Source: Salegentibacter sp.
Lineage (GTDB): Bacteria; Bacteroidota; Bacteroidia; Flavobacteriales; Flavobacteriaceae
Direction of reading: 5' to 3'
Assembly (NCBI GenBank): GCA_017795085.1
Contig: CP051246.1
Coordinates: forward strand, 558,001 to 622,000
DNA length: 64,000 bases
Made by a program: the position numbers and the translations under genes
Notes under the pieces: generated by a model
The model's database searches: none
Told to the model about the DNA's origin: nothing
Seen by the model: the letters and a program-made list of their open reading frames with translations, nothing else
Shown here: positions 13,926-48,282 of the stretch, in pieces
Layout: each line of letters starts with the position of its first letter
Position numbering within the stretch: the first letter of the stretch is position 1

Positions 13926-13969
13926 AAAGTAGTTTTTAATAGTGGTTTGAACCCCAGTTGGTTTTGGGT

Positions 13970-14896: not shown

Positions 14897-14898
14897 CC

Positions 14899-15519: not shown

Positions 15520-15586
15520 TTTAAAAAAATTTATAGCCTGTTGATTTGTTTTTATTGCTATCGGTTAAGCGATTTTAGCGCTCCCG

Positions 15587-16435: not shown

Positions 16436-17016
16436 CAGTAGGCTGTTTTCCGGTTATTGACCTTGTCCTGCATTTTCCGAAAGGAAATGATATCCCGGTA
16501 GCGTTTGGTCTTTAGCTGCAAGTCGCTTAGCATTTCCTGGGATTCCAGTTCTTTTTGTTTTAAGACTTCAGCCCGCTCGGCATCACTCATTTTTAAATGG
16601 CCGCTGGAGAGGATCTCATCGATAAAATCCACCGCTTCCAGGGCATTCTCAACCACGGCATTAAAGGATTGGCTGACCCGGGTAATTTCTCCAGGTTTGA
16701 TATAGGGGGAACTCAGAATCTCCTGAAGGGCGTTTTGCATCACTCTTATCAGACGCTGGTTGTTACGGCCGATTGCCCGGACGGCTTTTAAATTTTTGAT
16801 TACGCTATTGACCTTTTCGATATTTTCCTTCTGTGTTTTAAGGAATTCCACCGTTTTAATAAGCTGGGAGGTCTGCTTGGCCGATTCGACCAGGGATTTG
16901 ACCAGGCTTACAAAATTCGTATTGTCATAGACCGGCATCCCTTGGCAGACAGCACCTGCAGGTATGACTAAGGCTATGGCCAATACGAGTATGAAGGTTG
17001 TATGTTTTGTCCTCAT
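16435..17016 (-). CDS. traI: Conjugative transfer protein TraI (DUF4141-like, VirB5-like)
   Basis: This 193-aa protein has a signal peptide (cleavage near AVCQG, residue 25) followed by an almost entirely helical, coiled-coil-prone domain rich in K and E. That pattern resembles periplasmic VirB5/DUF4141 proteins at this position between the VirB4 ATPase and traJ. No catalytic motif is visible. The name follows gene order in CTnDOT; individual residue conservation could not be checked. Confidence 0.7.
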   Translation of the reverse strand: MRTKHTTFILVLAIALVIPAGAVCQGMPVYDNTNFVSLVKSLVESAKQTSQLIKTVEFLKTQKENIEKVNSVIKNLKAVRAIGRNNQRLIRVMQNALQEILSSPYIKPGEITRVSQSFNAVVENALEAVDFIDEILSSGHLKMSDAERAEVLKQKELESQEMLSDLQLKTKRYRDIISFRKMQDKVNNRKTAY

Positions 17017-17047
17017 AAGAGATTTGATTTTTAGGATGAAGGGCAGG

Positions 17048-33647: not shown

Positions 33648-34781
33648 ATGAATAAATTCCATTTATATTATCTCAGCCTATCCATATTACTGAGCTTCTG
33701 TGCTTTCAAAGTTTATCAGGAATACGATATTGATAAGTTAAGGAAGCGCTATAGTAGCGGAGATCCATCAACCTGGCCGGTACCAGTACTTGAAGAAGAA
33801 GTCAGAGATAATTTTGAGGATATAGGGCATCTGCCTTCCCCTAAATTTCCTAAAGATAACCCTTATAATAAAGCAAAAGACGAACTGGGAAAAATATTAT
33901 TCTTTGATCCCAGGTTATCCTCTTCAGGGCAAATTGCCTGTGCAAGTTGTCACGATTCTGAAATTGGCTGGGGTGATGGACGCCGGGTGAGCTATGGCCA
34001 TAACAGACAACAAGGCCGTAGAAACGCAATGACCTTATTAAATGTTGGCTACGTGGATAGTTTATTTTGGGATGGAAGAGCAACTTCCCTTGAAGACCAG
34101 GTGGGTTTTCCAATTAAAGATTCCACAGAAATGAACTTTCACGTCAATCTGGCCATCAAGCGGATAGCTGAAATAAATGGGTATAAAAAACCCTTTGAAT
34201 CTGCTTTTGAGAATGGAAAGATAAATGAGGAGAATATCCGAAAAGCTATTGCTACCTTTGAACGGACTATCATTAGTGAAAGCACTACATTTGACAGATT
34301 TATTGATGGAGAAGCTGATGCTTATTCTGATCAAGAAGTTTTGGGTTTACATCTTTTTAGAACTAAAGCTCGATGTATAAACTGCCACAATACTGGTTAT
34401 TTTAGTGATAATGAGTTTCATAATACAGGTTTGACTTATTATGGACGGAAGTATGAAGACTTGGGTTTATATGAAGTTACTGGCGAAGCTAAAGATGTAG
34501 GAAAGTTTAGAACAGCTACTTTAAGGGAAGTTTCGCGAACAGAACCCTATATGCATAATGGCCTATTTCCTCACCTGGAAGGTGTAATTAATATGTATAA
34601 TGCCGGAATGCCACGTCCAACACGAAAGGCACATCAGGTAAATGACAGTCTTTTTCCTAGAACCTCACCATTATTGGAAAAATTAAACCTAACAGATAAA
34701 GAAAAGGCTGCACTTTTGGCCTTTATTAAAACTTTAGAGTCAAGAAATAGAAGGATAAACCCACCGGAATTACCTAATTAA
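33648..34781 (+). CDS. Di-haem cytochrome c peroxidase family protein
   Basis: This 377-aa periplasmic protein has an N-terminal hydrophobic anchor or signal. It has two haem c motifs: CASCH (residues 98-102) and CINCH near 243. The domain order is that of CcpA/MauG-type enzymes. The segment DGRATSLEDQV and the C-terminal EPYMHNGLFPHLEGVI with its conserved Met/His are typical. It may reduce peroxide or oxidise the imported metal complex. Its last four bases (TTAA, 34778-34781) are shared with the stop of the convergent rteC, so no terminator separates the two. Confidence 0.85.
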   Translation: MNKFHLYYLSLSILLSFCAFKVYQEYDIDKLRKRYSSGDPSTWPVPVLEEEVRDNFEDIGHLPSPKFPKDNPYNKAKDELGKILFFDPRLSSSGQIACASCHDSEIGWGDGRRVSYGHNRQQGRRNAMTLLNVGYVDSLFWDGRATSLEDQVGFPIKDSTEMNFHVNLAIKRIAEINGYKKPFESAFENGKINEENIRKAIATFERTIISESTTFDRFIDGEADAYSDQEVLGLHLFRTKARCINCHNTGYFSDNEFHNTGLTYYGRKYEDLGLYEVTGEAKDVGKFRTATLREVSRTEPYMHNGLFPHLEGVINMYNAGMPRPTRKAHQVNDSLFPRTSPLLEKLNLTDKEKAALLAFIKTLESRNRRINPPELPN

Positions 34782-35605
34782 TCATCTTTATTCAATTTAG
34801 CATCAAGTAGTATTTTTAATTGGTTCAAAAACTTAGTACGTTCACCCTTCCGGGCTTTGATATCATAATAAGTTTTATAAAGATTATTGAGTTTGATATT
34901 GAAAAAGTCTTCAAAAGCTCTGGAAATGGTGATAATATCTGTAGTTCCGTGGTTAAGATGACCACTAGAAAAAAGAGCGTAAATAAGTTCGATAAGATCG
35001 GTTTTTCCGCCGGACCATACTAATAAATTAGGCTGTCGTTCCTTGAATTCAGAAATGCTACCCGGTTTAAGACATTCCAATTTCTCTCGGATATAATGGA
35101 TGTATCGATACAATGCCTGTACTTTGGCCCATAGCATATCGTGACTGGTAGAAAACTCCGGGTTTTGGTAATAATTAATAGAAGGGCTCAAGGAAAAGTT
35201 CTTTCTGCCCTTGCGGCTGAAGAATTGATGGTTCAGGTAATTATGGCTTTGTTCCATATAATGTACAAAACTGTTATTGGCCGAAAAGAACTTGTTGATT
35301 TTCTTGATCTCCTTTTTTAAAAAGCGCACTTTGTGAGAGTTCCCAGCTTTGGGCAATTGTAGTTCACACGAGCGCACCTCGGTAAAATAGATAAGATAGC
35401 TCATCGGGATGGGTTTGATATTTTTAAAAAAATCAATCTCCGATTGGCTATCCTCAAAATCATCCTGATTTACCTGTTTCTGTAATTTAGAGAGTGTTTT
35501 GATACAAAGGTTTATGCCGTTTTCTGCCTTTTCTAAATCGGTTTTTCCTGAATGGATTAGGCGCTCGATCTTTTCGCTAAATGTCGACATTGTTTTTTCG
35601 TACAT
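34778..35605 (-). CDS. rteC: RteC-like regulator of conjugative transposon excision
   Basis: This protein of about 275 aa is helix-rich. Its C-terminal pattern is characteristic of RteC: LLVWSGGKTDLIELIYALFSS, then AFEDFFNIKLNNLYKTYYDIKARKGERTKFL. In CTnDOT, RteC is activated by RteB and turns on excision genes. I chose ATG 35605 (MYEKTMST); an ATG at 35656 would add 17 residues of unlikely sequence. It lies 7 kb beyond the Xis/replication operon, across the peroxidase operon. Either that operon is cargo or rteC belongs to a separate remnant. Confidence 0.8.
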   Translation of the reverse strand: MYEKTMSTFSEKIERLIHSGKTDLEKAENGINLCIKTLSKLQKQVNQDDFEDSQSEIDFFKNIKPIPMSYLIYFTEVRSCELQLPKAGNSHKVRFLKKEIKKINKFFSANNSFVHYMEQSHNYLNHQFFSRKGRKNFSLSPSINYYQNPEFSTSHDMLWAKVQALYRYIHYIREKLECLKPGSISEFKERQPNLLVWSGGKTDLIELIYALFSSGHLNHGTTDIITISRAFEDFFNIKLNNLYKTYYDIKARKGERTKFLNQLKILLDAKLNKDD

Positions 35606-35705
35606 AAGGGTTGTTCTAAATGAAAACAGATAATACCGTTGCTGTGCTATTTTCAATATGTTTTTTTAGGGAAGGAATATTAAAAATTACGCTTCAAGGA
35701 GGATG

Positions 35706-38111
35706 CTAATCTTTCCTTAACCATTCTAAAGCTTCAAGGCTGAAATTATCGTTTGCCTGAAGATATGCTACTTTGGGAATTATAGTAACTCCTAATTTCC
35801 GTTTTTCGAAAGAAGCACTAAAACCGAAATCTATCTGTTTAAATTTTAAGTCTTTTGCTCTTTTGATAGTTTGGTAGAGCAGTTGGCGATAGGTCTGAAA
35901 CTCCTTATTATAATTATAATCCATTCCTATTAGGCTGGGGACATAAACCCGCTGTTGGTTTTTATAACAAAACATTACTCCTGCCAGGTTCTGGCTGTTT
36001 TTTAGCCGCAGTACTATAAACTCCCAGTTGGGATGTAGAGCCATTTTTTCAAAGACTCTTATGGGATAGGTAAAGGTGTTTAGCCCGAAATTCTTCGATT
36101 TAACTTCTTTGTATAATTCATAATATAATTGGAGGTCCTGGCTATTGGGCTTGTTCTGGATGTGAATATCAAAATAATCTTCAAAAGGTTTTACATCCTT
36201 TCTAAAGTGTTTTCGAGAGCGTTTACTCAAACGATCTAAAAATTCTTGTTCATTTCTCCAATCTAAATTTTGCATTACGCAAGAATCTGGCATTGAAACC
36301 GGAATATAGGCTTGTTTTTGTAATAAAGTTTCAACCTGTGTTTTAGGTGAAAAGTCACGAAGTACAGTCATAGCATTACCGGATTTATCTGCTAATTCTT
36401 CAATTTTTCTTAGTAAAAGCCTCAAAGCCGTTTCTTTTTGAGGATGCTCTTGATCCAGATATAGGTGAGCGCCTTCTGTGAACAAACAGCCCGTAGCGAT
36501 AACTTTAGAAGTCATTTTGTAAGGATCCGCTTGTCGTTGTTCTTCTATGGCCTTTGAAACTTTTTCAGGTGATAACATATCGTCTTTCCAAATTGACTCA
36601 CTTAAGAAAGTTGCTAATACCGTCTGCTGATTTCTGTCTTTAATCAAAAAGTAATGAAATTTCCAGTTATGCTCTTTTTTGGAATTCCCCTTAAAACATT
36701 CCTCGAGAAATTGGAGCCCTTCACTATCCATAATATTATTTCTTCCAACCATTTTATTCCAGGTATTGGGATGAATATCTTTAATGGCATTATAATAATA
36801 AATGTATAAATCTGTAATTGGAGCAGGGGGTACTTCTTTCGGATTTACACTTAGCTTAAAAGCTTTTGCTACTCTTTCAATAGTGTTTCCTGTAGCCAAA
36901 AGAGCTTTTTTATAGTGATATTCTAAAGCTTCGAACAATTGATCTATATCTGCTAAGGTATTATGAAGGGAAATGGTGATGCGTACTCCCGTATTTTTTA
37001 CCGGTACAGCCGGGAAAAGTCCAAGATTCACAAAAAAACCATTGTCCATTAATTGTTTTACAAAATGATAGCCGGTTACAGGAAGACCGGTGCCTATATA
37101 AAATACGGGGGAATCATTTTGAGAAATAAGTGGTAAAAAACTTTGGGAAAGTAACTTATTGAAGTAGGTAATGCGTAGCTGCAATTCTTTTTGTAATTGA
37201 TATATTTCCTGGGATAAATGAATATTGGCCGCGGCAATTCCCGCTGCGACACTTGCGGGTTCTAATTGTGCTGAGAATGTTAATGGCCCCCCATAGGTTT
37301 TTATTTTTCGATGGAGTTCATTATCAGAAAAAATAACGACCGATCCACTAGCCCCAAAGGTTTTGCTTAGTGTACCTACCAGGATTACATTTTGAGGTAA
37401 TTTTCCTTTTAAGATATCTAGTACATATCCGGTACCGTTATTTCCTTTCCAGCTCATTCCATGTACATCATCAAAATAAAAATGTAACTGTGGGTACTTT
37501 CTGCTTATTTCCATAAGTTCTTCTATGGGCGAGAAATCCCCATACATAGAATACACTCCATCAGCCATATACCAAATCTTGGAAGTGCGGGATTGTAGCT
37601 TTTTTATTTTTTCTTCCAACATTTGTAAATTATTGTGCCTAATCATTTCTACAGGTATACCCCTTGGCTTCAAGAGCTGGGTTGCATTTTGAACACTCCA
37701 ATGTACCTGGTGGTCAAGAATTACTGCATCCTCATCTCTTACAGCTGTAGGAATTACCGCTATATGACCAAGCGTACTATTCTTTGTAATGATTACTGGA
37801 TAGCCATACATTGCTGATAATTTTTCTTCCAGTTCGAGGTAAAGAGGATGGGAAATATATGTTTTGGATAGCGGAAATTGAGTACCATAATTTGAAATAG
37901 CATTAATAGCAGCCTGTTTTAATCGTTTATCCTGTTCCAGGCCCAGGTAGCCTGTAGTTCCAAAATGTTTAAGATCCATTCCTTTCACCTTTATAGTATT
38001 ACCGTTTAAAACTAAACCTTCGGAATGGAGGTGTAAGACACCTTCTTGTTTTGCATTGGAGAACACATCATCTACGGTATCCAAAAAATTATTGTGTTTA
38101 ATTTTTGCCAT
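35706..38111 (-). CDS. Alpha-oxoamine synthase-like PLP enzyme fused to a GNAT acyltransferase
   Basis: This protein of about 801 aa has two catalytic parts. Residues 25-425 resemble alpha-oxoamine synthases (KBL/BioF/serine palmitoyltransferase) with DDVHGMSWKG near 214-223 and the PLP lysine in GTLSKTFGASG (Lys near 250). Such enzymes condense acyl-CoA with an amino acid. After a linker, residues 620-800 resemble a GNAT/FemAB-like N-acyltransferase (WEFIVLRLKN, then QIDFGFSASFEKRKLG). A lipid-amide product is a plausible inference. ATG 38111 (MAKIKHNNF) is chosen over 38171. It is divergent from the STAS-like gene, with 191 bases between. Confidence 0.75.
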   Translation of the reverse strand: MAKIKHNNFLDTVDDVFSNAKQEGVLHLHSEGLVLNGNTIKVKGMDLKHFGTTGYLGLEQDKRLKQAAINAISNYGTQFPLSKTYISHPLYLELEEKLSAMYGYPVIITKNSTLGHIAVIPTAVRDEDAVILDHQVHWSVQNATQLLKPRGIPVEMIRHNNLQMLEEKIKKLQSRTSKIWYMADGVYSMYGDFSPIEELMEISRKYPQLHFYFDDVHGMSWKGNNGTGYVLDILKGKLPQNVILVGTLSKTFGASGSVVIFSDNELHRKIKTYGGPLTFSAQLEPASVAAGIAAANIHLSQEIYQLQKELQLRITYFNKLLSQSFLPLISQNDSPVFYIGTGLPVTGYHFVKQLMDNGFFVNLGLFPAVPVKNTGVRITISLHNTLADIDQLFEALEYHYKKALLATGNTIERVAKAFKLSVNPKEVPPAPITDLYIYYYNAIKDIHPNTWNKMVGRNNIMDSEGLQFLEECFKGNSKKEHNWKFHYFLIKDRNQQTVLATFLSESIWKDDMLSPEKVSKAIEEQRQADPYKMTSKVIATGCLFTEGAHLYLDQEHPQKETALRLLLRKIEELADKSGNAMTVLRDFSPKTQVETLLQKQAYIPVSMPDSCVMQNLDWRNEQEFLDRLSKRSRKHFRKDVKPFEDYFDIHIQNKPNSQDLQLYYELYKEVKSKNFGLNTFTYPIRVFEKMALHPNWEFIVLRLKNSQNLAGVMFCYKNQQRVYVPSLIGMDYNYNKEFQTYRQLLYQTIKRAKDLKFKQIDFGFSASFEKRKLGVTIIPKVAYLQANDNFSLEALEWLRKD

Positions 38112-38302
38112 AGTGTAAATTTTGAAAGAATATGGATTCAAACTACATATACTGATGTGAAACGATATCATTTAAGCTCCTTATCTATTAAAATTTTAGA
38201 TTTTTAATAGGAATTTTTTTATTTTTAATAAGCTGACTTAAGATATTACCATTAATTTTATAGTGATAATTCCCTACCACTTATCACACAAAACCGCTGT
38301 TT

Positions 38303-38683
38303 ATGGAAAGTGATTTTACCGCAAATAACGCGGTGGCCGATATTTATATTGAAGATGGAATTCTATTTTTCATTTACCAACCTAATATCCACCTAAGCCT
38401 GCAACTTGCAAAAGATGCAGTTACTCGAAGATTATCTGTTCAAAAAGATAAGGCTTACCCGGTGTTTTGTGATGTAAGGGGGTTGGCTTCTTCCGATAAA
38501 GTTGCCAGGGACTATTTAGCGAGGGAAGGCTCGGTTTTGGTTAAAGCTGTAAGCTTTCTTGCAAAAGATTATATCTCGCTGCGAATTATAAAGTTCTATA
38601 TGAGTAACGATATTCACGGAATTCCATCCAGAATTTTTACTCAAAGCTATCACGCATTAAAATTTTTGCAACAATTTAAATAA
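38303..38683 (+). CDS. STAS-like small protein (DUF7793-like)
   Basis: This 126-aa soluble protein has alternating strands and helices (IYIEDGILFFIYQPN, then LAKDAVTRRLSV, then YPVFCDVRGLASSDKVARDYL) resembling STAS/SpoIIAA-like folds in Bacteroidota. It lacks an obvious phosphorylatable serine at the canonical site, although VRGLASSD is close. It lies 8 bases before the AraC-family gene and may modulate it or the divergent oxoamine synthase fusion. Function unknown. Confidence 0.55.
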   Translation: MESDFTANNAVADIYIEDGILFFIYQPNIHLSLQLAKDAVTRRLSVQKDKAYPVFCDVRGLASSDKVARDYLAREGSVLVKAVSFLAKDYISLRIIKFYMSNDIHGIPSRIFTQSYHALKFLQQFK

Positions 38684-38691
38684 TCTCAAAT

Positions 38692-39582
38692 ATGGAACGA
38701 CAACTTACACCTCGAACAGCCAGACCAATATTCCAAATACTAATGGAAATAGCAAAGGGAAATTTCTCCTATAAGATCCCAAGAAGTGATAATAGGGATT
38801 TATTAGGAGCACTGTACGAACAGGCAAACATGACGGTCCAGGATTTAGAAGAGAATTTCAAGCACCTGGCTTATGTAAATCCTCATATGACGTATCAGTT
38901 AATCATTCACTCTATAATTGTTCTGAATCAGGAAGAAATAATTAGCGCCTGTACACCTTCTATTTTGAATTATAAAATAGGAAAATCAAATCCCATTCTG
39001 GGAAAACCTTTTAAAAACCTGCTTACCAAATCTTCCCTGAAGAATTGGGAGAAGGCCATATCAAAATTTAAAAGTAATCCCGATAATCCCGTACAGTCTA
39101 CATTGGAGTTGGAAATAGATGAACAATTGGTAATGCCCCAAAACTGTTATATTAAAAAGATGGAAACTAATTCTGATGATTGCTATATTGCCGTGAGCTT
39201 TTTCCAGAATAAAAGAATAAATGATCCTGCAATACTAAACGAATCAAAAGAAACGCTTTCAAAATGGGATGTGATGGCGCTACAACAGGTACATGATTAT
39301 ATCCAGCGAAATGTTGGAAAACCAAGAGTTTCGAACGCAAAACTGGCTGAAAAGTTTTATATTAATAAGCACCGGCTGCAAAAAGGTTTTATAAAACTTT
39401 TTGGATTAACACCCTTCCAGTATTATAATATTTTACGCCTGGAAGAAGCTCGGTATCGAATTATAAATACCTACCAAACTTTAGAAGTAATTTCATCAGA
39501 TCTCGGATTTAAAAGTTACACGCAGTTTTCGGCAAAATTCAAAAGTCACTTTAACCGTTCTCCCGGATCCTACCGGGAATAG
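38692..39582 (+). CDS. AraC-family regulator with HAMP/PAS-like N-terminus
   Basis: This 296-aa protein ends in a standard AraC DNA-binding domain (residues 200-296: KLAEKFYINKHRLQKGFIKLFGLTPFQYYN, then VISSDLGFKSYTQFSAKFKSHF). Residues 12-55 read like a HAMP linker (IFQILMEIAKGNFSYKIPRSDNRD) with no membrane helix. A PAS-like region follows. It appears to be a cytosolic sensor-regulator derived from a larger membrane receptor. It precedes the MauE-like/DUF6520 genes by about 100 bases and is a candidate regulator of them. Confidence 0.75.
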   Translation: MERQLTPRTARPIFQILMEIAKGNFSYKIPRSDNRDLLGALYEQANMTVQDLEENFKHLAYVNPHMTYQLIIHSIIVLNQEEIISACTPSILNYKIGKSNPILGKPFKNLLTKSSLKNWEKAISKFKSNPDNPVQSTLELEIDEQLVMPQNCYIKKMETNSDDCYIAVSFFQNKRINDPAILNESKETLSKWDVMALQQVHDYIQRNVGKPRVSNAKLAEKFYINKHRLQKGFIKLFGLTPFQYYNILRLEEARYRIINTYQTLEVISSDLGFKSYTQFSAKFKSHFNRSPGSYRE

Positions 39583-39679
39583 GCTGGTTTTAACATATTA
39601 GCCTGATAGAGAGAAGACTTCTCACTTTCAATAAGTATTCTTCCCGAAATTTATATCATTAAATCAAGGGAAAACTATT

Positions 39680-40129
39680 GTGAGTTCATCTTCTCAAATA
39701 CGGGCTTCATTATATTTGATAATAGTGTATGCTTTTATCATATTATTGTTCTATGCAGCCGTTAGTAAACTCATAGAATATCCACAGTTTTATAATGATT
39801 TATTGAATAGCCCGGTATTTGGAAATGAGCATTTGGCAGTACTTGTTTTCTGGGCCGTGCCCCTTGCAGAATTAACCATAGCCGGATTGTTGATCAGTAC
39901 TTCATATAGAAAGCTGGGAGTGTATTTAGCATCTGGTTTAATTAGCCTTTTTACGCTCTATATTATTTGGGTATTGGTTTTTAGTGAAAACATACCCTGT
40001 TCCTGCGGAGGGATTATTAGCAATTTTAGTTGGCAGGAGCATCTGATCTTTAATACCATATTTGTGTTTTTAGGTGCATTTGGAATCTATCTTCAAATTA
40101 AAAAGAGGAAAAGAGTATTTATAAAATAG
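39680..40129 (+). CDS. MauE/DoxX-type redox-associated membrane protein
   Basis: This 149-aa protein has four membrane helices (about residues 10-29, 51-75, 80-101 and 118-139) and starts at GTG 39680. A CSCGG segment (Cys107, Cys109) lies at the end of the third helix, where MauE-type proteins carry a redox pair. Known of the family: MauE assists disulfide formation in methylamine dehydrogenase. It lies 76 bases before the exported two-cysteine peptide gene, so a role in oxidising that peptide is a reasonable inference. Confidence 0.7.
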   Translation: MSSSSQIRASLYLIIVYAFIILLFYAAVSKLIEYPQFYNDLLNSPVFGNEHLAVLVFWAVPLAELTIAGLLISTSYRKLGVYLASGLISLFTLYIIWVLVFSENIPCSCGGIISNFSWQEHLIFNTIFVFLGAFGIYLQIKKRKRVFIK

Positions 40130-40205
40130 TATTGCGCAATACTAAAAGCGCCTATTATCTCAAACGGGATTAGGCATAGTGTTTAATTTTTAAAATGTAA
40201 TTATT

Positions 40206-40487
40206 ATGAAAAATTTCAAATTTTTAATGCCCATGTTGGCATTCGTAATGGCAGTAGGTTTGGCCTTCACCACAAAAGCTGATGTCCAAACTGCAGGATG
40301 GGTTGAGAGGGATGGAATGCCTTATCAACTTCAAAATGATCCCTGTAACTCAGGCACTGAGGATGAATGTGAAGTTATCTTTTTAGATGACTTGGATACC
40401 CCTCATCAGGTATATACAGATTCTGATTTGCAGACTCCAAAGATAGGAGGAAGTCCAGATGGAGAACCTTATGTTATTTCAGATTAA
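40206..40487 (+). CDS. DUF6520-like exported small peptide
   Basis: This 93-aa precursor has a signal peptide (residues 1-25, ending FTTKA) and a mature part of about 68 residues that is very acidic and contains exactly two cysteines (C47 and C55, DPCNSGTEDECEV). This resembles the DUF6520 family of short flavobacterial exported proteins. A disulfide loop of 7 residues is likely. It follows the MauE-like gene and is closed by a strong terminator. Biological role unknown: signal, bacteriocin-like or structural peptide are possible. Confidence 0.7.
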   Translation: MKNFKFLMPMLAFVMAVGLAFTTKADVQTAGWVERDGMPYQLQNDPCNSGTEDECEVIFLDDLDTPHQVYTDSDLQTPKIGGSPDGEPYVISD

Positions 40488-40504
40488 TTCAGTAGTATGA
40501 GGTT

Positions 40505-40533
40505 TAGCCCCGGTTTTAAACCGGGGCTATTAC
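40505..40533. terminator. Bidirectional terminator between DUF6520 and M16 genes
   Basis: TAGCCCCGG (40505-40513) pairs perfectly with CCGGGGCTA (40521-40529) around TTTTAAA. It separates the convergent peptide gene and peptidase gene by 48 bases in total. Confidence 0.85.
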
Positions 40534-40535
40534 TA

Positions 40536-43349
40536 TTACAAATTGTTGGGACCACCGGTTAAAACCCATCTATAATCCAGTTTAAAATATTTATTTGCAG
40601 CCTTTTGAAGATCTTTAGCGCTGAAATTTGTAAGGTATTTTTGAGCTTCAGAGGGATCGGCTATTGGCCAACTGTAGCGATAGTGACCATATAGGTTTTT
40701 CATAACATAATTATTATAATTTTTAGTAGAATTATCCCATTTAAGCAGGTACGCGGCATTTTTAATGGTTTGTAATGTATTTTCATCAATTAATTCGGTT
40801 CTCAATTCTTCAATAAAATTTTCACAAGAATTCACCACGCCCTTCAGGTCTTCCTTATTGCATTTAAGGTAGATTTCTATTGAGTTAATATTCCTTTCCG
40901 GATTTATCTTTTTTACTGCTTTAGCTGAATATATACCAAAATATTCATTGTATCGTAGCCTTCTAATTTTTACATCTAACGCGGCTTTAAGCAATTCCAG
41001 TTCGATCTCCGTTTTATAATTTATATTTTTATAGGGAACCCGAAATTGCATGGATAAATAGGAATTATCCACCGGCTGGGAGAAATTATGATGGGCCACG
41101 CCTTGTACAGGGGGTGTTGTTTTTGTTTTATCCGGGCAGCTAATTACCTCTGTATTTGGAAGGTTTCCTAAATATTTTCGCAATAATGGCAGCACTTTTC
41201 CTTCCTGAAAATCTCCTGTAATTAATACAGTATAGCTACTCGCATTGGAGTGTAATCTGATATATTTTTTAAAAGCATCTCTATAATTTAATTTCAAACT
41301 CTCTTCATATCGATTTTCACCTTGGGGCATTTTATAGTAACCAGTTTCCTGATTTCGGAAGTCTAAAAAATTATTATTCGGATTTGAATTTCGGTGAAAC
41401 CTTTTTAATTCCTCCATTTTCCAATCCTTCCAGGCTTCCTTATCAAATCTTGGTTCGGTAAATTTTAGATAAATTACCTGCAAAAATGCTTCCAAATCAT
41501 TTGGGGCTAAGGCTCCTTCAAAACCAGTTTCAGAAGCGGTTATATAATCATATAACCCATATTGAAAGCTCGTATCTTTAAGAAAATTGTTTATTTCAAA
41601 TTTATTGTATTTTCCCAGACCACCATTTTTAATAAGACTTGGGGAAAGCATGGCTTCATAATCAGCTTCTCCAAAGCAGGATGCTCCAAAAGGACTAAAA
41701 GCTCTAATCTTAATTTTATCTTTATACCTTCCCCCTTTAGGTTGATTGTGCTTTAAAACTAGCGTTAATCCATTTTCCAACTTTATAATGTCTTCGCCAT
41801 AAGCACCTTTTTCTCTGCTAATAATTTCAACTTCAGAAAATTTTTCTATCTCTTTGTTAGTTAGTAGTTTAGTTGGTTCCTTAACCTCCTTAAATGGAGT
41901 AGGAGCATTAAGCCCTTCTCTAATTTTCTTTTGAATTTCCTTTTTACTATAAATGCTGTCATCCCTTTCCTTAGGTATAATTACAGCGATGTCGTCTGGC
42001 ATCCAGCTATATACTTTAAGGTAGTTATTAATAGTAGCGATATCCAAATTCTCCAGAAAATATATTTTATCTTCAATATTAGGTTCAAAATCGTTTCTTT
42101 CATTAACAACTCGATCTGTATAAAAATCAGCCCAATAATCTACAGAAAAAATGGGGGTCTGTTTTAAATTTCCTAGTCGGGAATTCATAGTTTCATTGTA
42201 TTCCTTTTGGGTTATTCCATTTTTGCTCAATCCGGATAGGGTTGAAAATACATCAATAATACTTTCCTGGGAGTCACTAAATGCTTTTATAAATACTGCA
42301 TTATGATATAGATTTGGGTAAGGTTGAAAGTTCACGGCATAATCAACATTATATCTATTCCCTAATTTATTTAAGCGTTTATTTATGATCGGTTTCAATA
42401 GGTTCCATAATTCAAGTTGCTGAAACCTTTTTAAATCTTTAAACTGCCAAGAATTTTCTCGAAAACGGAATTGAAAATCGGTATCTGATTTTGTTTTATC
42501 CAAACTATTAATTACCATAAAACTTTGGGGTATGTTTAGATATTCATAGAAACAATTTGTTTTTTTACGCGGATTTGCAGTCATCCTAATATCTTTAAAC
42601 ATCTTTTTTATTTTCTTTTCTATATCATCAATATTTTTAAAATTTCCTACGGCAACTAAAGTCATAAGATCTGGACGGTACCAGTCGTTATAAAATCGCT
42701 TTAAAGCACTATTCGTGGAATTCATAATCATATTTTCAAACTGATGAGGTAAGGGCGTTTTTTTATTACATTTAAATAACTTATTATTGATTTTATGTCT
42801 TGCATAACTCTTTTCCGGATTCCCTAATAAATACTCCTGATATACCGCTTTTCGCTCTGCCTTTATTTGGTCTTCTTTAAAAACCACCTTTCCAGAGGCT
42901 ATTTCATAAGCATAATCAAAGATGGTATCCAAAGCTATACTGGTATTTGAAGGGTACATAAATTGAAACCAGGTAGAATTATCAAAAGTAAAGGCATGCA
43001 GATCACTCTGCCTTAAATTTAACTGCCCTAATAATTCTGTATCATTTTTAAAGTTTGTATAACTTTCTAAATAATTAAAAGCCAGATGTTCAAGTAGATG
43101 TGCATGATCAAACTGATCATTACCTTGTTGGCTTTTGCCTGCGTTAACAATAAAACGTACTTCATTCTTTTGAACCTTACCTGAGAGTGGTTTTATAATG
43201 TAGCGAAAGCCATTATCAAGTTTCCTAATTATAGGTTTTTCCTTTTCATTTTCGACTTTGTGTGGCTGAAAATTTTGTTGTGCAATAATCAGATTTAAAC
43301 TGAAGACAAATAATACAGTGCAAAAAAATTTTGAATTACTTAATTTCAT
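40536..43349 (-). CDS. Secreted M16 family zinc metallopeptidase
   Basis: This 937-aa protein has a signal peptide (cleaved near LIIAQQ, residue 24), the zinc motif HLLEH (84-88) and a downstream AERKAVYQEY segment supplying the third ligand. The second M16 domain is non-catalytic, as usual. It ends the SusC-SusD-M16 operon, 9 bases after the SusD gene. M16 enzymes degrade small peptides in a closed chamber, so the operon probably imports and digests a peptide. It is distantly related to the M16 enzyme at 3.5-6.4 kb. Confidence 0.85.
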   Translation of the reverse strand: MKLSNSKFFCTVLFVFSLNLIIAQQNFQPHKVENEKEKPIIRKLDNGFRYIIKPLSGKVQKNEVRFIVNAGKSQQGNDQFDHAHLLEHLAFNYLESYTNFKNDTELLGQLNLRQSDLHAFTFDNSTWFQFMYPSNTSIALDTIFDYAYEIASGKVVFKEDQIKAERKAVYQEYLLGNPEKSYARHKINNKLFKCNKKTPLPHQFENMIMNSTNSALKRFYNDWYRPDLMTLVAVGNFKNIDDIEKKIKKMFKDIRMTANPRKKTNCFYEYLNIPQSFMVINSLDKTKSDTDFQFRFRENSWQFKDLKRFQQLELWNLLKPIINKRLNKLGNRYNVDYAVNFQPYPNLYHNAVFIKAFSDSQESIIDVFSTLSGLSKNGITQKEYNETMNSRLGNLKQTPIFSVDYWADFYTDRVVNERNDFEPNIEDKIYFLENLDIATINNYLKVYSWMPDDIAVIIPKERDDSIYSKKEIQKKIREGLNAPTPFKEVKEPTKLLTNKEIEKFSEVEIISREKGAYGEDIIKLENGLTLVLKHNQPKGGRYKDKIKIRAFSPFGASCFGEADYEAMLSPSLIKNGGLGKYNKFEINNFLKDTSFQYGLYDYITASETGFEGALAPNDLEAFLQVIYLKFTEPRFDKEAWKDWKMEELKRFHRNSNPNNNFLDFRNQETGYYKMPQGENRYEESLKLNYRDAFKKYIRLHSNASSYTVLITGDFQEGKVLPLLRKYLGNLPNTEVISCPDKTKTTPPVQGVAHHNFSQPVDNSYLSMQFRVPYKNINYKTEIELELLKAALDVKIRRLRYNEYFGIYSAKAVKKINPERNINSIEIYLKCNKEDLKGVVNSCENFIEELRTELIDENTLQTIKNAAYLLKWDNSTKNYNNYVMKNLYGHYRYSWPIADPSEAQKYLTNFSAKDLQKAANKYFKLDYRWVLTGGPNNL

Positions 43350-43358
43350 AATTACATA

Positions 43359-44768
43359 TTAATACCCCGGATTCTGGGTAAGGTTAGGATTTTTCATTAT
43401 TTCACTGGCAGGGAAAGGAAAGAACCATGAATTAGGATTGAAATTGGAACCTTCTTTATTTTCCAGATTGGTAGTTAAATTGTAGCGTTTAAGATCCAAC
43501 CAACGATGCCCCCACTCAGTAAACAATTCTTTTCGGTGTTCCTGAATTACAAATTCCAAAACCTGCTCTTGGCTTAAAGACTGCTGAGAACTATCGATCA
43601 AAGAAATTCCCGCACGGTTTCTGATTACATTTATGTCTGAAATTGCACTGTTTATCTCTCCCAATTGGGCATTAGCTTCAGCTCGGATTAAATATTGTTC
43701 GGCAATACGCAAGACCATGGAATATTCGGTTATTTCTCCAGAGGTGTCATATTGTATTTTATATTTATAGGGATAATGAAGCGTATCGCTATTGATTACA
43801 ATATCATTAATCCAGGTCTCCGCCCGATTATCAGGAATATTGTCATCAAATATTTCCAGGAAATCGTGAGAAAATGCAACGGGGGTATTATCAGTAGGTG
43901 TTTTAATTAGTAGATTTCCTTCGCGGGTGTGGCTAAAACTATTTCCCCATCCAATGGGTGATATTTGCCAAATCGCTTCCTTGCTATTTGCCAGAAAAAC
44001 CTGGTCCAGATTTTCTAAAAGCTCATAGTAATCGTTATCCTCGATAACCCGGGAACTATAATTTACGGCCTCTTCCCAATTCCCCAGAAATAAATGCACT
44101 CTTGCCAATAGCGAAAGCGCGGCATATGTATTGGGTTGTGTTCGATCTTCATCAGTGTAAGAGGCATTCAGAAGATTTGCAGCTGATTCCAGGTCTAATG
44201 TTATTTGTTGAAAGATAATATCCCGGTCTTCATTACCTGCCAGGGCATTTACTTCATAATTTGTATTTAAAATTAATGGTATTTCATCGTACAGGATAAC
44301 GAGGTAGAAGTAAGTAAAGGCTCTTACAAACCGAGCACTACCTTCAATTTTATTAAGAAGTACCGAAGATAGGTTTTCATTGTTTTCTATTCCTTCCAAA
44401 AGGGAATTGGCCTGGTAAATAATATTATAACTTCCCCGCCATAGCTCTAAATTAAAGTTATTGGTGGAGGTAATATTATTCTGGTAAAATTCATTTAAAT
44501 CTTGGGAAGTAGATGTCACGATAAAATTATCCGCAGATAAACCTGCTAAATAGCTTACAGATTGGCTTCCTCCGCTAGAAAAACTGGCATTAAATAATTG
44601 ATTGAACATGCCAGTTAAGGCACTTTGAGCTGCTTGCTCGTTAGCAAAGACCACCTGACTATCTAGTTTATAAGTTGGGGTATCCACTTTTACAAACTCC
44701 TCACAACTGTAAAGGGGTAATAAAACAACTATAGTAGCAAATTTTATTAGTGTATTTAGAATGTTCAT
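43359..44768 (-). CDS. SusD/RagB-type surface nutrient-binding lipoprotein
   Basis: This 469-aa protein has a lipoprotein signal with the cysteine at residue 22 (LYSC). Helical tetratricopeptide-like repeats follow (SARFVRAFTYFYLVILYDEIP and NTYAALSLLARVHLFLGNWEEAVNY are classical SusD segments). The C-terminus has RKELFTEWGHRWLDLKRY. It forms the lid of the SusC transporter encoded upstream. RagB relatives bind peptides, in keeping with the peptidase downstream. Confidence 0.9.
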   Translation of the reverse strand: MNILNTLIKFATIVVLLPLYSCEEFVKVDTPTYKLDSQVVFANEQAAQSALTGMFNQLFNASFSSGGSQSVSYLAGLSADNFIVTSTSQDLNEFYQNNITSTNNFNLELWRGSYNIIYQANSLLEGIENNENLSSVLLNKIEGSARFVRAFTYFYLVILYDEIPLILNTNYEVNALAGNEDRDIIFQQITLDLESAANLLNASYTDEDRTQPNTYAALSLLARVHLFLGNWEEAVNYSSRVIEDNDYYELLENLDQVFLANSKEAIWQISPIGWGNSFSHTREGNLLIKTPTDNTPVAFSHDFLEIFDDNIPDNRAETWINDIVINSDTLHYPYKYKIQYDTSGEITEYSMVLRIAEQYLIRAEANAQLGEINSAISDINVIRNRAGISLIDSSQQSLSQEQVLEFVIQEHRKELFTEWGHRWLDLKRYNLTTNLENKEGSNFNPNSWFFPFPASEIMKNPNLTQNPGY

Positions 44769-44778
44769 GTTACGTGGT

Positions 44779-47700
44779 TTAGAAATTTACTTGTATTCCT
44801 GCTGTTATGCTTTGCAGTGCTGGAAGGTTTGTGCTACCCGGGTTTTGGGGGTCTAAACCTTTATAATCTGTAATGGTGAAGAGATTTTGCCCCTGGATGA
44901 ATAATCTCAAATTGGAGACAGCAAGGTTCTCCTCATGTAGTGGTATCTTGTAATTAAGATTAATACTTTTCATTCGTAGGAAAGAGGCATCGGTTATTCG
45001 TGCCGAACTTCCCAGATAATCTCTATAAGCCAAAAAGCCGGAAATAGCCTGTGTAGGTTTTTGAAAATTTTCAGATTGAGGATGCCCATCTACGGTATAC
45101 CTTCCATCATCGAGAATATTTGTTTTAAAACCGGGAACCCCACTATTATAACTGAGACCTTTTTGGTTAACAAACTCCATTAAAAAGTTTAAAGAAAAGT
45201 CTTTATAGCTAGCGCGGCTGCCAATACCTCCATAAAACCTTCTCCCTAAATTGTTTATAATTACCCTATCCTCGTAATTTAAAGTGCCATTGCCATCAAT
45301 ATCTATTACTTGGTATAATCCTGTTTCCGGATTTACTCCATCAAACTGATATTGCTTGATAATACTCAAAGGTTTATTAATTTCATAGGCAGTAGCATAG
45401 GAGCTTTCTTTAAGCCCTTCGAATTCCAATAGTTTATTTCTCGGGATACTGAGATTTAAGGAGCCACTCCAAAGGAAATTACGGGTTTGTAATAATTCGC
45501 CTGAAAATTCTATTTCCAGGCCCGAGTTTTGGACTGTTGCGGGAAGATTGGCCTCCACACTGTTGAAGCCGGTGATTGCGGGAAGGGTATAACCTACTAA
45601 TTGATTCGAAGACCGATTTTGGTACCAACTTAGATTAAGATTAAAACGATTATCCACGAAACCAAGTTCAAGGGCAACCTCTAATTTATGAGTTGATTCC
45701 CAGGAGAACACCGGGTTGGTTAACTGGGTGGGGTAGAGGCCTCCGGGGCCAGGTGTCGGTTCGTAGGTATCCATATACTGGTAATCTCCGATTTGATCGT
45801 TACCGGTAATCCCATAGCTTGCCCTTAATTTACCGAAGCTTAATAACCTTAGATTTTCATTTATAAATTTAGTATTCGAAAATATCCATGCAGCTCCCAC
45901 AGCACCAAAATTGGAGAAGCGGTTTTCCGGTCCAAACCTAGAAGATCCATCCCTTCTCCCGGTTAAATTAAGAAAATAAGAATGATCCCAATTATAGCCT
46001 ATTCTTGCAAATACAGCTTGATAATTATAAATAAACTGCTGATCTGCGCTAACGCTTACTGCATCGGCAGCATTAAGATTGCCTATAAAATGGTCATTGG
46101 AATAACCGGTTCCGTTTAAGGATAAACGATTATCCAGATTCCTTTGAAAGGTGGTGCCAATTATTGCATCAACCTGATGATTATTAATACTTTTTGAATA
46201 GGAAAGTTGAGGTTCGGCAATCCAGGATCGTCTCTGTATCTGGGAGTGTTGCGATCTGCTAATAGTACGATCCCAAATAGCAGGATCATAAAGCTGGATA
46301 GGCATTAAAATATTATCCCTGCTTTCTAAGGTAGTATAGCCTAAGTTGGCCTTTAGAAACAAATCCTGGTTAAACTTATATTCTAAGCCTAAATTAGCTA
46401 CTAAATTATTTGATACTGTTTGTCCCTTGCTCTCCAGAGCAGCCAAAGGATTGTCCCATGACGAGTTTTCCCAATTTAAACTTCCATCATCATTGTATAA
46501 AGCAGGAGCGTTGGGGGCCAGGTTTAAGGCAGTTTCCACAAAATTATCGCTGCTAAATATATCATTTTCGGTTATCCCATAATTTGCAGAAAGGTTGAGA
46601 TGAAATTTTTCATTGGGAGACTGATGGTTAATAGTAAGGTTTACCGTCTTTTTTTCAAACGCATGATTTCCGGGAAATACGTTTTCCTGTTTTAAGTAGG
46701 AAGCCCCTAAATTAAATCTGGTAAGCTTTCCACCTCCAGAATAATTTACACTAGCATTAAGTGTAGGAGCGCTCTTGCCAAATAGTTCTTTTTGCCAATT
46801 GGTTTGTCTGTCCCGGTCCCATAGGATTAAATCTTCTGCATTTGAAGTAGTAGGTTCTATACCGTCATTTTCAAAAGCCTGACGCCTTAAAGACAAATAT
46901 TGTGGAGTATTTAAAAGATTTAAGAAATTTGAAATCCGGCTAATGCCTCCATATACCTGTGCATCTATTTGCTGCCTATTATTACCAGTACTGCCTTTTT
47001 TAGTAGTAATTAATATAACTCCATTTGCTCCACGGGAACCATAAATTGCTGTGGCATCGGCATCCTTCAAAACTTCAATGCTCTTAATATTGGCCAGGTC
47101 GATACCGTTTAATGGATCTGTTCCGATAGTATTGCTAAACCTGTTTATAGAGGTTACTGGAGCAGAATTTATTGGTACTCCATCAATAATATACAATGGA
47201 AGGTTGCCATTGTTTCCTAAGCCTGTGCGCAGGCTATTCTGACCTCGTATGCGTATTGTTGGTGCTGCACCAGGTATACCCGTTTCTTGTACAATTTCAA
47301 CTCCCGCCATTCTTCCCTGCAAAGCCTGCAGTGGACTTACCACCGGTTGCAATTCAATCTCCTTTCCGGAAACTCGCGAAATATTCCCCGTACGCTCCCT
47401 CTCTGTAGTATTATAATATCCGGCGTTTATCTCCACCGCGCCCAGGGCTTCAACATCCTCTTCTAACTGGATATTGATTTCTTCCCGGCCGTCTACGGCA
47501 ACTTCCCGGCTTTTAAAGCCCAGGTAGGAAATAATTAAAGTGGCACCGGCAGGGGCGGTAAGGGTGTAGTTCCCCTCCATATTGGTTAAGGTGCCGTTGT
47601 TACTGTCTTTAATGGATACTGTGGCTCCCGGAACGGACAGCCCGTCTTTGTCGGTAATGGTACCGGAAATTTCTACTTCCTGGAAATAAGAATAGGAAAG

Positions 47701-47796
47701 GGGAGTGGCTGTTACTGGTTTTATAGAAAACAGCAGGAACAGACCAATTACTATAGCCGCCACGATATACGTGTGGCTTTGGTAATTATTTTTCAT
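44779..47796 (-). CDS. SusC/RagA-type TonB-linked outer-membrane transporter
   Basis: This 1005-aa protein starts with a long hydrophobic signal. A carboxypeptidase-like beta domain (residues 42-120) follows, then a plug domain with ALQGRMAGVEIV and a TAIYGSRGANGVI segment diagnostic of SusC. The rest is a 22-strand-type barrel ending in F. It heads the operon SusC-SusD-M16 with spacings of about 10 bases. RagAB-type pairs take up oligopeptides; with M16 present, a peptide ligand is likely. The promoter must lie in 47797-48506; none was confidently placed. Confidence 0.9.
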   Translation of the reverse strand: MKNNYQSHTYIVAAIVIGLFLLFSIKPVTATPLSYSYFQEVEISGTITDKDGLSVPGATVSIKDSNNGTLTNMEGNYTLTAPAGATLIISYLGFKSREVAVDGREEINIQLEEDVEALGAVEINAGYYNTTERERTGNISRVSGKEIELQPVVSPLQALQGRMAGVEIVQETGIPGAAPTIRIRGQNSLRTGLGNNGNLPLYIIDGVPINSAPVTSINRFSNTIGTDPLNGIDLANIKSIEVLKDADATAIYGSRGANGVILITTKKGSTGNNRQQIDAQVYGGISRISNFLNLLNTPQYLSLRRQAFENDGIEPTTSNAEDLILWDRDRQTNWQKELFGKSAPTLNASVNYSGGGKLTRFNLGASYLKQENVFPGNHAFEKKTVNLTINHQSPNEKFHLNLSANYGITENDIFSSDNFVETALNLAPNAPALYNDDGSLNWENSSWDNPLAALESKGQTVSNNLVANLGLEYKFNQDLFLKANLGYTTLESRDNILMPIQLYDPAIWDRTISRSQHSQIQRRSWIAEPQLSYSKSINNHQVDAIIGTTFQRNLDNRLSLNGTGYSNDHFIGNLNAADAVSVSADQQFIYNYQAVFARIGYNWDHSYFLNLTGRRDGSSRFGPENRFSNFGAVGAAWIFSNTKFINENLRLLSFGKLRASYGITGNDQIGDYQYMDTYEPTPGPGGLYPTQLTNPVFSWESTHKLEVALELGFVDNRFNLNLSWYQNRSSNQLVGYTLPAITGFNSVEANLPATVQNSGLEIEFSGELLQTRNFLWSGSLNLSIPRNKLLEFEGLKESSYATAYEINKPLSIIKQYQFDGVNPETGLYQVIDIDGNGTLNYEDRVIINNLGRRFYGGIGSRASYKDFSLNFLMEFVNQKGLSYNSGVPGFKTNILDDGRYTVDGHPQSENFQKPTQAISGFLAYRDYLGSSARITDASFLRMKSINLNYKIPLHEENLAVSNLRLFIQGQNLFTITDYKGLDPQNPGSTNLPALQSITAGIQVNF

Positions 47797-48282
47797 AATT
47801 TTGCGTGTGATTTTAATGAAACAATTGTTTTATTAAGCCCAGGCCTTCCTCACCAGACACCAATCTTTAGGAGGAAGGTCCTTTTGCTTATAGGCTAATC
47901 CAATTTTCTTTTCATATACAATTTTTTATGTATTTCCGGTACCGAAGCCCTACCTACGATACCTTTAAATCTATTAACCATGTTCCCAAACCTAGCTTCT
48001 TTAAAATAGAACCGGTTTCCCACCCAAAGCTGTTACTGAAAATAGGGTCGTAATAGCTGCCCACGGGATTGTTTACCTGTTCCCGTATAGGTATAAGTTC
48101 CCCTTTTGGGAGATTTTTACGAGATTGTTTTGATTTTTCCCGTCCCGCAACGAGTTGAGGTTAGACATAAATTTAGGTACCAAAACAGATGATTTTAGTA
48201 CTGCGAGACTTATAAAATGTAGAAGATTACCTTGAAACTTATGAAGAGTATAAAACCAAAAAAGGCGTGGAACTCAACTTAA

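What the first reader, a model, noticed from the sequence alone, without database searches (positions are those of the whole stretch)
38303..47796. Exported two-cysteine peptide with its own MauE-like redox protein, next to a SusCD-M16 peptide uptake operon
Seen: a DUF6520-like precursor (signal peptide, two Cys 8 apart), a four-helix CSCGG protein directly upstream, a STAS-like and an AraC gene before them, and a convergent SusC-SusD-M16 operon separated by only a perfect terminator. Known: MauE-type proteins assist disulfide formation; RagAB-type pairs import peptides; M16 enzymes digest them. Inference: one gene set makes a disulfide-bonded extracellular peptide and the other imports or destroys such peptides, i.e. 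a signalling or competition system. I cannot show that the operons share a substrate.
Basis: partly seen in the sequence, partly recalled or inferred. Interest (0 to 1): 0.75.

Follow-up and report, generated by a model that had tools for sequence, protein, structure and literature searches.

The report
Self-made peptide with matched importer cassette
Bacteria of the phylum Bacteroidota carry, often on mobile DNA, a gene for a small cysteine-paired mini-protein facing the genes for its probable import gate and digesting enzyme, and peptide and gate are inherited and swapped together, which points to an undescribed way of recognising or using a self-made molecule.

Summary
Of 83 fetched DUF6520 loci (genus to phylum), 80 have the gene facing a SusC-SusD operon or its contig-cut remnant; L065, L146 and L156, doubtful matches, do not. 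The operon adds a varying enzyme: M16, S9, met-zincin or thioredoxin-like. The mature peptide has 2 or 4 Cys; MauE is adjacent in 61 of 79 analysed loci. Some locus pairs share a near-identical backbone (PLP enzyme, DUF7793, AraC, MauE) but differ abruptly from DUF6520 on through M16, SusD and SusC; others show the reverse, so peptide, enzyme and importer travel as one polymorphic cassette. Conjugation markers lie nearby in 52 of 79. A covarying hairpin leader precedes SusC in 6 of 6 such operons of the window's genome and in none of 20 other SusC leaders tested; of its six stray hits elsewhere, two were unlisted cassettes. It was not found in most thioredoxin-type loci. The M16 is of FusC/PqqL type. 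Best reading: an exported disulfide mini-protein is the ligand of its own SusCD importer and is processed in the periplasm. Release, uptake and purpose are not shown.

The parts
38303..38683 (+). DUF7793 protein, 126 aa; first gene of the peptide-side operon; backbone part
   Evidence: Pfam PF25056 E 4.9e-37; same place in most Salegentibacter-type loci and all 9 Arenibacter/Salinimicrobium loci
38692..39582 (+). AraC-type regulator, 296 aa; backbone part
   Evidence: Pfam HTH_18 E 9.3e-18; 88-95% identical in several locus pairs whose cassettes differ
39680..40129 (+). MauE-type redox membrane protein, 149 aa, GTG start, CSCGG
   Evidence: Pfam PF07291 E 2e-28; within 3 kb of DUF6520 on its strand in 61 of 79 loci
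40206..40487 (+). DUF6520 precursor, 93 aa: conserved leader (about 1-22), mature part about 71 aa with Cys47 and Cys55
   Evidence: Pfam PF20130 E 5.1e-23; invariant M1 P9 A12 F21 C47 C55 in 29 sequences; AF2 block pLDDT 80-91 over residues 31-93, five short strands; cleavage site by eye
40505..40529 (.). perfect inverted repeat between the convergent operons, terminator-like
   Evidence: 33 of 35 measurable loci have a 39-162 bp gap with folding energy -18 to -42 kcal/mol
40536..43349 (-). M16 peptidase, 937 aa, HLLEH at 84, FusC/PqqL type
   Evidence: Pfam; nearest solved chains by sequence 9ldy, PqqL 6ofs/6oft, then 6b03, 6brs, 6b05 (6B05 is named FusC in PMC12731061); HxxEH in 36 of 36 linked M16 of 800 aa or more
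43359..44768 (-). SusD/RagB-family protein, 469 aa
   Evidence: Pfam PF07980 E 2.6e-30
44779..47796 (-). SusC/RagA-family TonB-dependent transporter, 1005 aa; no STN domain among the Pfam matches
   Evidence: TIGR04056 E 9.1e-206; Pfam
47791..47892 (-). conserved SusC leader: covarying hairpin plus TTTCAT able to pair with the ATGAAA start
   Evidence: no Rfam match at gathering threshold in the window
35706..38171 (-). divergent backbone gene: PLP enzyme (AONS/serine palmitoyltransferase-like) fused to FemAB/GNAT-like acyltransferase, 821 aa
   Evidence: Pfam, PDB relatives; in the fetched stretch of 32 of 79 loci
34778..35656 (-). RteC, regulator of CTnDOT-type elements; backbone
   Evidence: Pfam PF09357 E 1.6e-59; in the fetched stretch of 41 of 79 loci
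8508..19450 (.). conjugation genes of the element that carries the locus: DUF5712, coupling protein, DUF4138 (TraN-like, name recalled), TraM, TraG
   Evidence: Pfam

Best explanation
The two convergent operons are one system: a ligand and its matched importer. The exported DUF6520 mini-protein (Sec-type leader, one disulfide here, two in the S9-type loci) is folded with help of a MauE-type redox protein where present, leaves the cell by an unknown route, and is bound by the cognate SusC-SusD pair, wholly or after trimming. It is then processed in the periplasm by the linked enzyme (M16 here; S9, met-zincin or a thioredoxin-like protein elsewhere). Peptide, enzyme, SusD and SusC form an exchangeable allele; AraC, DUF7793, MauE and the PLP enzyme are the shared backbone, often beside RteC or other genes of a conjugative element. 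In Flavobacteriaceae-type loci SusC is under a dedicated leader hairpin. Shown here: linkage, co-inheritance, even Cys, conserved M16 motif, leader. Inferred: export, disulfide, binding, uptake, cleavage, regulation.
For: Linkage: all 6 DUF6520 genes of the window's genome are convergent with an M16; all 36 PF20130 matches above cut-off in the relatives search lie in such loci (35 loci); 9 of 9 new named loci; 34 of 36 fetched loci of a phylum sample. Constant partner SusCD, changing enzyme. Co-inheritance: L057/L058 dS 0.12-0.28 in PLP enzyme, DUF7793, AraC, MauE (RteC 0.36) but 1.35-1.52 in DUF6520, M16, SusD, SusC; L033/L034 the reverse (0.39-0.50 versus 0.01-0.14); L088/L089 likewise except SusC. 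Rank correlation of mature peptide with S9, SusD, SusC holds when MauE divergence is removed (0.37-0.42 versus 0.08-0.16 for MauE; 23 loci). Mature Cys 2 or 4 in 36/36 and 36/36 loci and 9/9. M16 of PqqL/FusC type, HxxEH kept. Leader tied to these operons in Salegentibacter and predictive.
Against: No experiment. The mature peptide is 7.8 kDa, above the roughly 5 kDa total cargo proposed for SusCD (PMC7782687), so intact uptake is doubtful. I recognised no outer-membrane exporter beside it; the peptide could stay in the periplasm. MauE is not adjacent in 18 of 79. Physical adjacency of DUF6520 and the enzyme gene can by itself make them co-inherit. In 26 Salegentibacter-type loci the peptide-M16 rank correlation (0.25) is no better than peptide-AraC (0.24). 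In L045/L052 and other pairs DUF6520 dS (0.58-0.97) lies between backbone and cassette, so the break is inside the gene. SusC-SusD-M16 operons without DUF6520 exist (L095, L098). One tandem DUF6520 has five Cys. The transporter beside PqqL (YddB, recalled to be PqqU) imports the small cofactor PQQ (PMC12124388, passages), so an M16 neighbour need not mean protein cargo. The SusC leader was not found in 10 of 33 phylum loci nor in L051, L055, L061.
Confidence: 0.57

Rival explanations
1. Periplasmic partner, not an extracellular ligand: DUF6520 stays inside and acts as inhibitor, plug or folding partner of the linked enzyme or of SusCD.
For: No exporter was recognised among the recurrent neighbours (maps; not every neighbour was identified); DUF6520 and M16 have the highest dN/dS in the three closest pairs (0.18-0.53 and 0.32-0.36 against 0.05-0.27 for the other genes; L032, L033, L034); 7.8 kDa is large for SusCD cargo.
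Against: The enzyme changes between four unrelated types while SusCD is constant, which is hard for a specific enzyme inhibitor; a plug of SusCD remains possible.
Confidence: 0.2
2. Private scavenger: the secreted peptide binds a scarce compound (metal, cofactor) and is recovered through its own SusCD, the enzyme releasing the cargo, like a protein siderophore.
For: Transporter plus FusC/PqqL-type M16 is the layout of the ferredoxin import system (PMC6071955, PMC6793856, abstracts and passages; M16 kinship); polymorphic ligand-receptor pairs fit private goods (recalled: pyoverdines).
Against: No conserved residues suggest a metal site beyond the paired Cys; no structural relative found.
Confidence: 0.2
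3. Bacteriocin with self-protection: the peptide enters related cells through SusCD, and the linked enzyme destroys it in the producer.
For: Mobile, polymorphic, swapped cassettes and a degrading enzyme.
Against: No toxin family or fold was matched; similar peptides can share one genome (L033 and L035 in G007, 61 of 74 mature positions identical).
Confidence: 0.1
4. Ordinary peptide foraging operon; the DUF6520 operon is an unrelated neighbour.
For: RagAB-type SusCD import food peptides (PMC11817032, passages).
Against: Convergence in 80 of 83 loci, co-inheritance, operon-specific leader.
Confidence: 0.03

Closest known systems
Protease-associated import systems: Fus (FusA-FusC, Pectobacterium) and YddB-PqqL (E. 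coli)
   Same: TonB-dependent transporter beside a periplasmic M16; the window's M16 is nearest by sequence to 9ldy, PqqL and FusC among solved chains (PMC6793856 abstract and passages)
   Different: Here the transporter is SusC with a SusD lid; a small exported protein is encoded beside it and co-inherited; the enzyme can be S9, met-zincin or thioredoxin-like. The paper's main text has no 'Bacteroidetes' or 'SusD'.
RagAB of Porphyromonas gingivalis
   Same: SusC/SusD pair for peptides, four alleles known (PMC11817032, passages)
   Different: The passages read name no cognate ligand gene and no linked enzyme or MauE; imports food peptides
MauE-linked candidate precursor-peptide clusters in Streptomyces (decRiPPter)
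   Same: MauE beside candidate precursor peptides, disulfide role speculated (PMC7794033, passages)
   Different: Other phylum; no SusCD or convergent peptidase mentioned in the passages read
CTnDOT-type conjugative elements of Bacteroidota
   Same: RteC, TraG, TraM, DUF5712 and coupling-protein genes in the window and markers near 52 of 79 loci
   Different: The peptide-importer cassette as cargo was not found described (search gave no paper)
Pheromone-controlled conjugation, pCF10 of Enterococcus (recalled, not searched)
   Same: Mobile-element-borne secreted peptide, import protein and peptide-clearing factor
   Different: Gram-positive, short linear peptides, cytoplasmic sensing; no sensing shown here

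Membership tests
DUF6520 (Pfam PF20130) | match above the curated cut-off over the profile | tested here: met
   81.7 bits against 25.4, profile 1-82 of 83
Protease-associated import system (Fus/PqqL type) | M16 of the FusC/PqqL group with signal sequence and HxxEH | tested here: met
   PDB sequence search ranks PqqL and FusC chains after 9ldy; motif in 36 of 36; signal sequence judged by eye only; no tree made
Protease-associated import system (Fus/PqqL type) | transporter of the FusA/YddB group | tested here: not met
   The transporter is SusC/RagA family with SusD lid
Protease-associated import system (Fus/PqqL type) | imports a protein and cuts it | not testable with these tools
   needs uptake and cleavage assays
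SusCD/RagAB importers | SusC TonB-dependent barrel plus SusD in one operon | tested here: met
SusCD/RagAB importers | cargo within about 5 kDa | tested here: inconclusive
   candidate cargo 7.8 kDa if intact; limit from PMC7782687 passages
RiPP (modified peptide) systems | dedicated modifying enzyme beside the precursor | tested here: inconclusive
   MauE in 61 of 79 loci; no known RiPP modifying enzyme among the neighbours that were scanned with Pfam (a selection of neighbours only)
Pheromone-controlled conjugation | locus on a conjugative element | tested here: met
   window carries conjugation genes; markers in the fetched stretch of 52 of 79 loci, so not in every locus
Pheromone-controlled conjugation | peptide controls transfer | not testable with these tools
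   needs mating assays

The most novel reading that the evidence does not exclude
A peptide-based self-recognition system of Bacteroidota mobile elements: each element carries its own polymorphic disulfide mini-protein as a badge, a matched SusCD gate to sample it, an enzyme to clear it, regulators next to RteC, and an RNA leader that throttles the gate, so that a cell can count or recognise carriers of the same element and tune transfer or exclusion accordingly.
Probability: 0.2. Interest if true: 0.92.

Novelty: new variant of a known kind. Interest (0 to 1): 0.78.

Why it matters
SusCD importers are the hallmark of Bacteroidota and are thought of as feeding machines; a class that is matched to a peptide made by the same cell changes that picture. 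It also gives import proteases of the FusC/PqqL kind a candidate substrate encoded next door, makes DUF6520 (no paper found) testable, and supplies natural allele pairs for a clean specificity experiment.

Tried and rejected
Random neighbour: disfavoured by the survey.

Fold as a clue: AF2 of the 2-Cys type gave a small beta fold with good confidence in the mature part (mean pLDDT 77.9 over all), but no PDB match (Foldseek best E 1.5; no chain with Z of 2 or more). The 4-Cys model is weak (mean pLDDT 68.9) and also without match (best E 1.7); a profile search of PDB sequences found nothing credible.

Plasmids: no DUF6520 match in PLSDB with the window protein; only distant PLP enzymes.

Shared operator between SusC and DUF7793 promoters: no common word of 8 or more bases in six loci; the search instead showed the SusC leader.

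Rfam: nothing at gathering threshold in the window.

Rows dropped or not fetched. One search lists 40 PF20130 rows; G038 was not fetched; the other 39 rows lie in 38 loci (L031-L067, L069; L068 was fetched for a MauE match and is not counted). 36 loci gave a peptide ORF and were analysed; L067 (below cut-off) has the arrangement but no ORF found by my profile; L065 (below cut-off) has no SusCD. One search lists 46 rows; 7 were already held (G000, G063), three weak rows (G255, G189, G254) were not fetched, 36 were. L146 (stop in frame) and L156, both over the cut-off, lack SusCD and MauE; they are left out of the 79 but are counter-rows. Of the 20 loci only the 9 new ones were mapped; three of these (L079-L081) are near-identical. 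A1 uses 29 of 36 peptides, A3 25 sequences, A4 28 of 43 SusC leaders; the other 15 were a duplicate, truncated, had a misplaced start or another SusC picked, or were more divergent. For L036 the nearest SusC picked by the script is not the one of the cassette, which touches one locus and the pair L036/L049. The 14 control stretches include L093, L101 and L103, which are probably cassettes cut by contig ends, and five stretches shorter than 18 kb or cut; the profiles for TraM, TraN, TraJ and TraK could not be built there.
Full report
What is there. The window is part of a 4.73-Mb genome of one contig. Its same-genus relatives include Salegentibacter: contigs of G002, G004-G007 and G009 agree in length and position with named Salegentibacter records. 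The peptide-side operon reads DUF7793, AraC, MauE, DUF6520; the other reads SusC, SusD, M16; they converge over 48 bp with a perfect hairpin.

Survey in relatives. PF20130 was found in 18 of 99 related genomes, 40 matches. Thirty-nine of these (38 loci; G038 left out) were fetched with up to 20 kb each, about 10 kb on either side. In 36 loci with a recognisable peptide ORF, DUF6520 faces the end of a SusC-SusD-enzyme operon; 34 show SusD and SusC, two are cut by contig ends (L048, L053). These hold all 36 matches above the Pfam cut-off (35 loci) and L066, below it. L067, below the cut-off, also has the arrangement; L065, below it, does not. In the window's genome all six DUF6520 genes face an M16, and six of its eight M16 relatives are so paired. 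In 33 of 35 measurable loci the gap is 39-162 bp and folds with -18 to -42 kcal/mol; in L064 and L066 it is 889 and 1104 bp.

Survey in named genomes and across the phylum. A scan with one leader pattern found 20 loci, nine of them new (eight Arenibacter, one Salinimicrobium); nine of nine have the arrangement, though three are near-identical. In 395 phylum genomes 32 had PF20130. Of 36 fetched loci, 34 have MauE, alone or fused to a further domain, on the same strand within 3 kb and a convergent SusD; L146 and L156 do not and look like false matches. Over all fetched loci 80 of 83 have the arrangement; 79 of these were analysed further. MauE is adjacent in 19 of 36, 34 of 34 and 8 of 9, together 61 of 79.

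The enzyme varies, the importer does not. Among the 79: M16 in 38 (29 plus 9 named), S9 prolyl oligopeptidase in 26, an AhpC/thioredoxin-like gene in 12 (in several of these it stands upstream of SusC and DUF6520 faces SusD directly), met-zincin (DUF4953) in L059 and L133, undetermined at a contig end in L164 (Pfam of examples; assignments of the rest by my own profiles). The window's M16 is closest, among solved structures and by sequence, to 9ldy, then E. coli PqqL and chains of which 6B05 is named FusC, proteases of import systems (PMC6071955, PMC6793856; abstracts and passages). HxxEH is kept in 36 of 36 linked M16 of 800 aa or more.

The peptide. The leader is unusually conserved for a signal peptide (M1, P9, A12, F21 invariant in 29 sequences), the mature part is not, except for its two Cys. 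Mature Cys number is 2 or 4 in 36 of 36 loci of the first set, 36 of 36 of the phylum set (the two doubtful ones included) and 2 in 9 of 9 named loci; one extra tandem copy in L061 has five. The 26 S9-linked peptides have four, the 38 M16-linked ones two; kinship can explain this as well as function. The window's mature peptide is 71 residues, 7.8 kDa, pI 4.05 (cleavage site by eye). AF2 gives a small beta fold with no structural relative found.

Co-inheritance. This is the strongest evidence that the two operons share a function. In L057 and L058 the DNA is 90-98% identical in 240-base windows from RteC to MauE, apart from the first RteC window (66%), and drops to 61-73% at DUF6520 and through M16, 69-85% in SusD and SusC; dS is 0.12-0.28 for PLP enzyme, DUF7793, AraC, MauE and 1.35-1.52 for DUF6520, M16, SusD, SusC. 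Between L034 and L042 or L045 the long alignment ends five bases after the first base of the DUF6520 start codon; with L045 a further 105-base piece of DUF6520 aligns at 74%. Between L045 and L052 a 90%-identical backbone, reaching into DUF6520, leads to M16 proteins of 20-23% identity. The reverse exists too: L033/L034 (PLP enzyme, DUF7793, AraC dS 0.39-0.50, RteC 0.05; cassette 0.01-0.14) and L088/L089 in Arenibacter (backbone 0.47-0.78; DUF6520 0.11, M16 0.17, SusD 0.27, but SusC 0.51). So differences in rate alone do not explain it. dS above about 1 is saturated, DUF6520 values rest on fewer than 110 codons, and in several pairs DUF6520 is intermediate. In 26 Salegentibacter-type loci the mature peptide correlates with SusC (0.51) and SusD (0.48) more than with M16 (0.25) or AraC (0.24) (one locus with a wrong SusC). 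In 23 S9-type loci it correlates with S9, SusD and SusC (0.48-0.53; MauE 0.36), and, with MauE divergence removed, still 0.37-0.42, against 0.08-0.16 for MauE with those removed.

Mobile context. RteC lies in the fetched stretch in 24 of 36, 10 of 34 and 7 of 9 loci; any conjugation marker (RteC, relaxase, coupling protein, TraG) in 25, 20 and 7, together 52 of 79. None was found in 14 stretches around other M16 genes, a weak control because three of them are probably cut cassettes and several are short. For scale, RteC has 47 matches in 21 genomes of about 2 to 5 Mb. The window itself carries DUF5712, coupling protein, TraG, TraM and DUF4138 genes.

A dedicated SusC leader. Comparing leaders of six loci with different cassettes showed a conserved block just before SusC. 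In 28 leaders it is a hairpin whose stem covaries (17 compensated cells against 3.6 in shuffles; 10 and 7 when slid by one column) and an invariant TTTCAT that can pair with the ATGAAA start; the second helix hardly varies, so its pairing is untested. A covariance model finds 35 places in 21 genomes: 29 near PF20130 matches, 3 at SusC-SusD-M16 operons cut by contig ends, 3 weaker ones elsewhere; 29 of 39 PF20130 rows have it. In the 14 Salegentibacter-type genomes searched there are 27 hits against at least 311 SusC genes (capped at 30 a genome), none in the four genomes without DUF6520. Only 150 candidates a genome were scored, so absence is not exhaustive. None of 20 other SusC leaders of the window's genome matches at E 0.1 or better (best 0.83). 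In one search it was found, often weakly, in 23 of 33 phylum loci; the ten misses are the nine thioredoxin-type loci and L168. It was also missed in L051, L055, L061 and in the SusC-SusD-M16 operons without typical DUF6520 (L095, L098, L102). Thirty of the 34 hits end at an in-frame SusC start. In 15 Flavobacterium-like genomes it occurs in 8 of 8 with DUF6520 (at 12 of 15 loci) and weakly in 1 of 7 without. Six stray hits were opened: two led to complete cassettes with a 4-Cys peptide not listed (L189, L190), four did not (L191-L194, one of them at E 9e-5). A protein-binding inverted repeat in DNA is not excluded.

Mechanism. The constant pairing of a self-encoded exported peptide with SusCD, co-inheritance, and the exchange of processing enzymes fit a ligand and its importer. 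The regulators and MauE do not change with the cassette, so they are unlikely to be what recognises the variable peptide. The main difficulty is size: about 5 kDa has been proposed as the total load of SusCD (PMC7782687, passages). The peptide may be trimmed, unfolded, or only bind at the surface. A second difficulty: the E. coli transporter PqqU imports PQQ (PMC12124388, passages), and PqqU is, as I recall, YddB, the neighbour of PqqL; so an M16 beside a transporter need not mean protein cargo. Purpose is open: signal, private scavenger, or competition.

Literature. No paper with DUF6520. Searches for SusC/SusD with M16 or insulinase, MauE with SusD, RteC with SusD, SusC with prolyl oligopeptidase, peptide pheromone with SusCD, and protease-associated import with Bacteroid- listed nothing that by title and abstract start describes this locus (listings only, several cut to the first 10 or 20). 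Subscription papers and preprints are largely not in that library. Siderophore and pCF10 parallels are recalled.

Noticed in passing
window 47791-47892 (-): Conserved SusC leader hairpin with an anti-start segment, tied to DUF6520-linked operons in Salegentibacter and without Rfam match; may be a new regulatory RNA or an operator.
   Followed up: yes
window 35706-38171 (-): Fusion of an AONS/serine palmitoyltransferase-like PLP enzyme with a FemAB/GNAT-like domain, next to RteC and divergent from DUF7793; found in the stretch of 32 of 79 loci; product unknown, CAI-1 synthase among distant relatives.
   Followed up: partly
L063:8384-9883, L064:10184-11701, L060:10227-11351, L066:10120-11229: A domain of about 350 residues without Pfam match, fused to MauE or encoded beside it in other genera.
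   Followed up: partly
window 28049-34781 (+): TonB receptor, lipoprotein-like protein, 526-aa protein and CCP_MauG gene lying between HTH (27419-27700) and RteC, which are close neighbours in other loci: looks like extra cargo of the element.
   Followed up: partly
L102:3287-3505 (+): Marginal seventh DUF6520-like ORF (72 aa, one Cys) in the window's genome, facing a SusC-SusD-thioredoxin-M16-DsbD cluster without the SusC leader.
   Followed up: partly
L054:3623-9771: Two M16 genes in tandem in one cassette.
   Followed up: no
L136:18297-18394, L137:18348-18445: A second copy of the leader hairpin about 800-900 bases further upstream of SusC.
   Followed up: no
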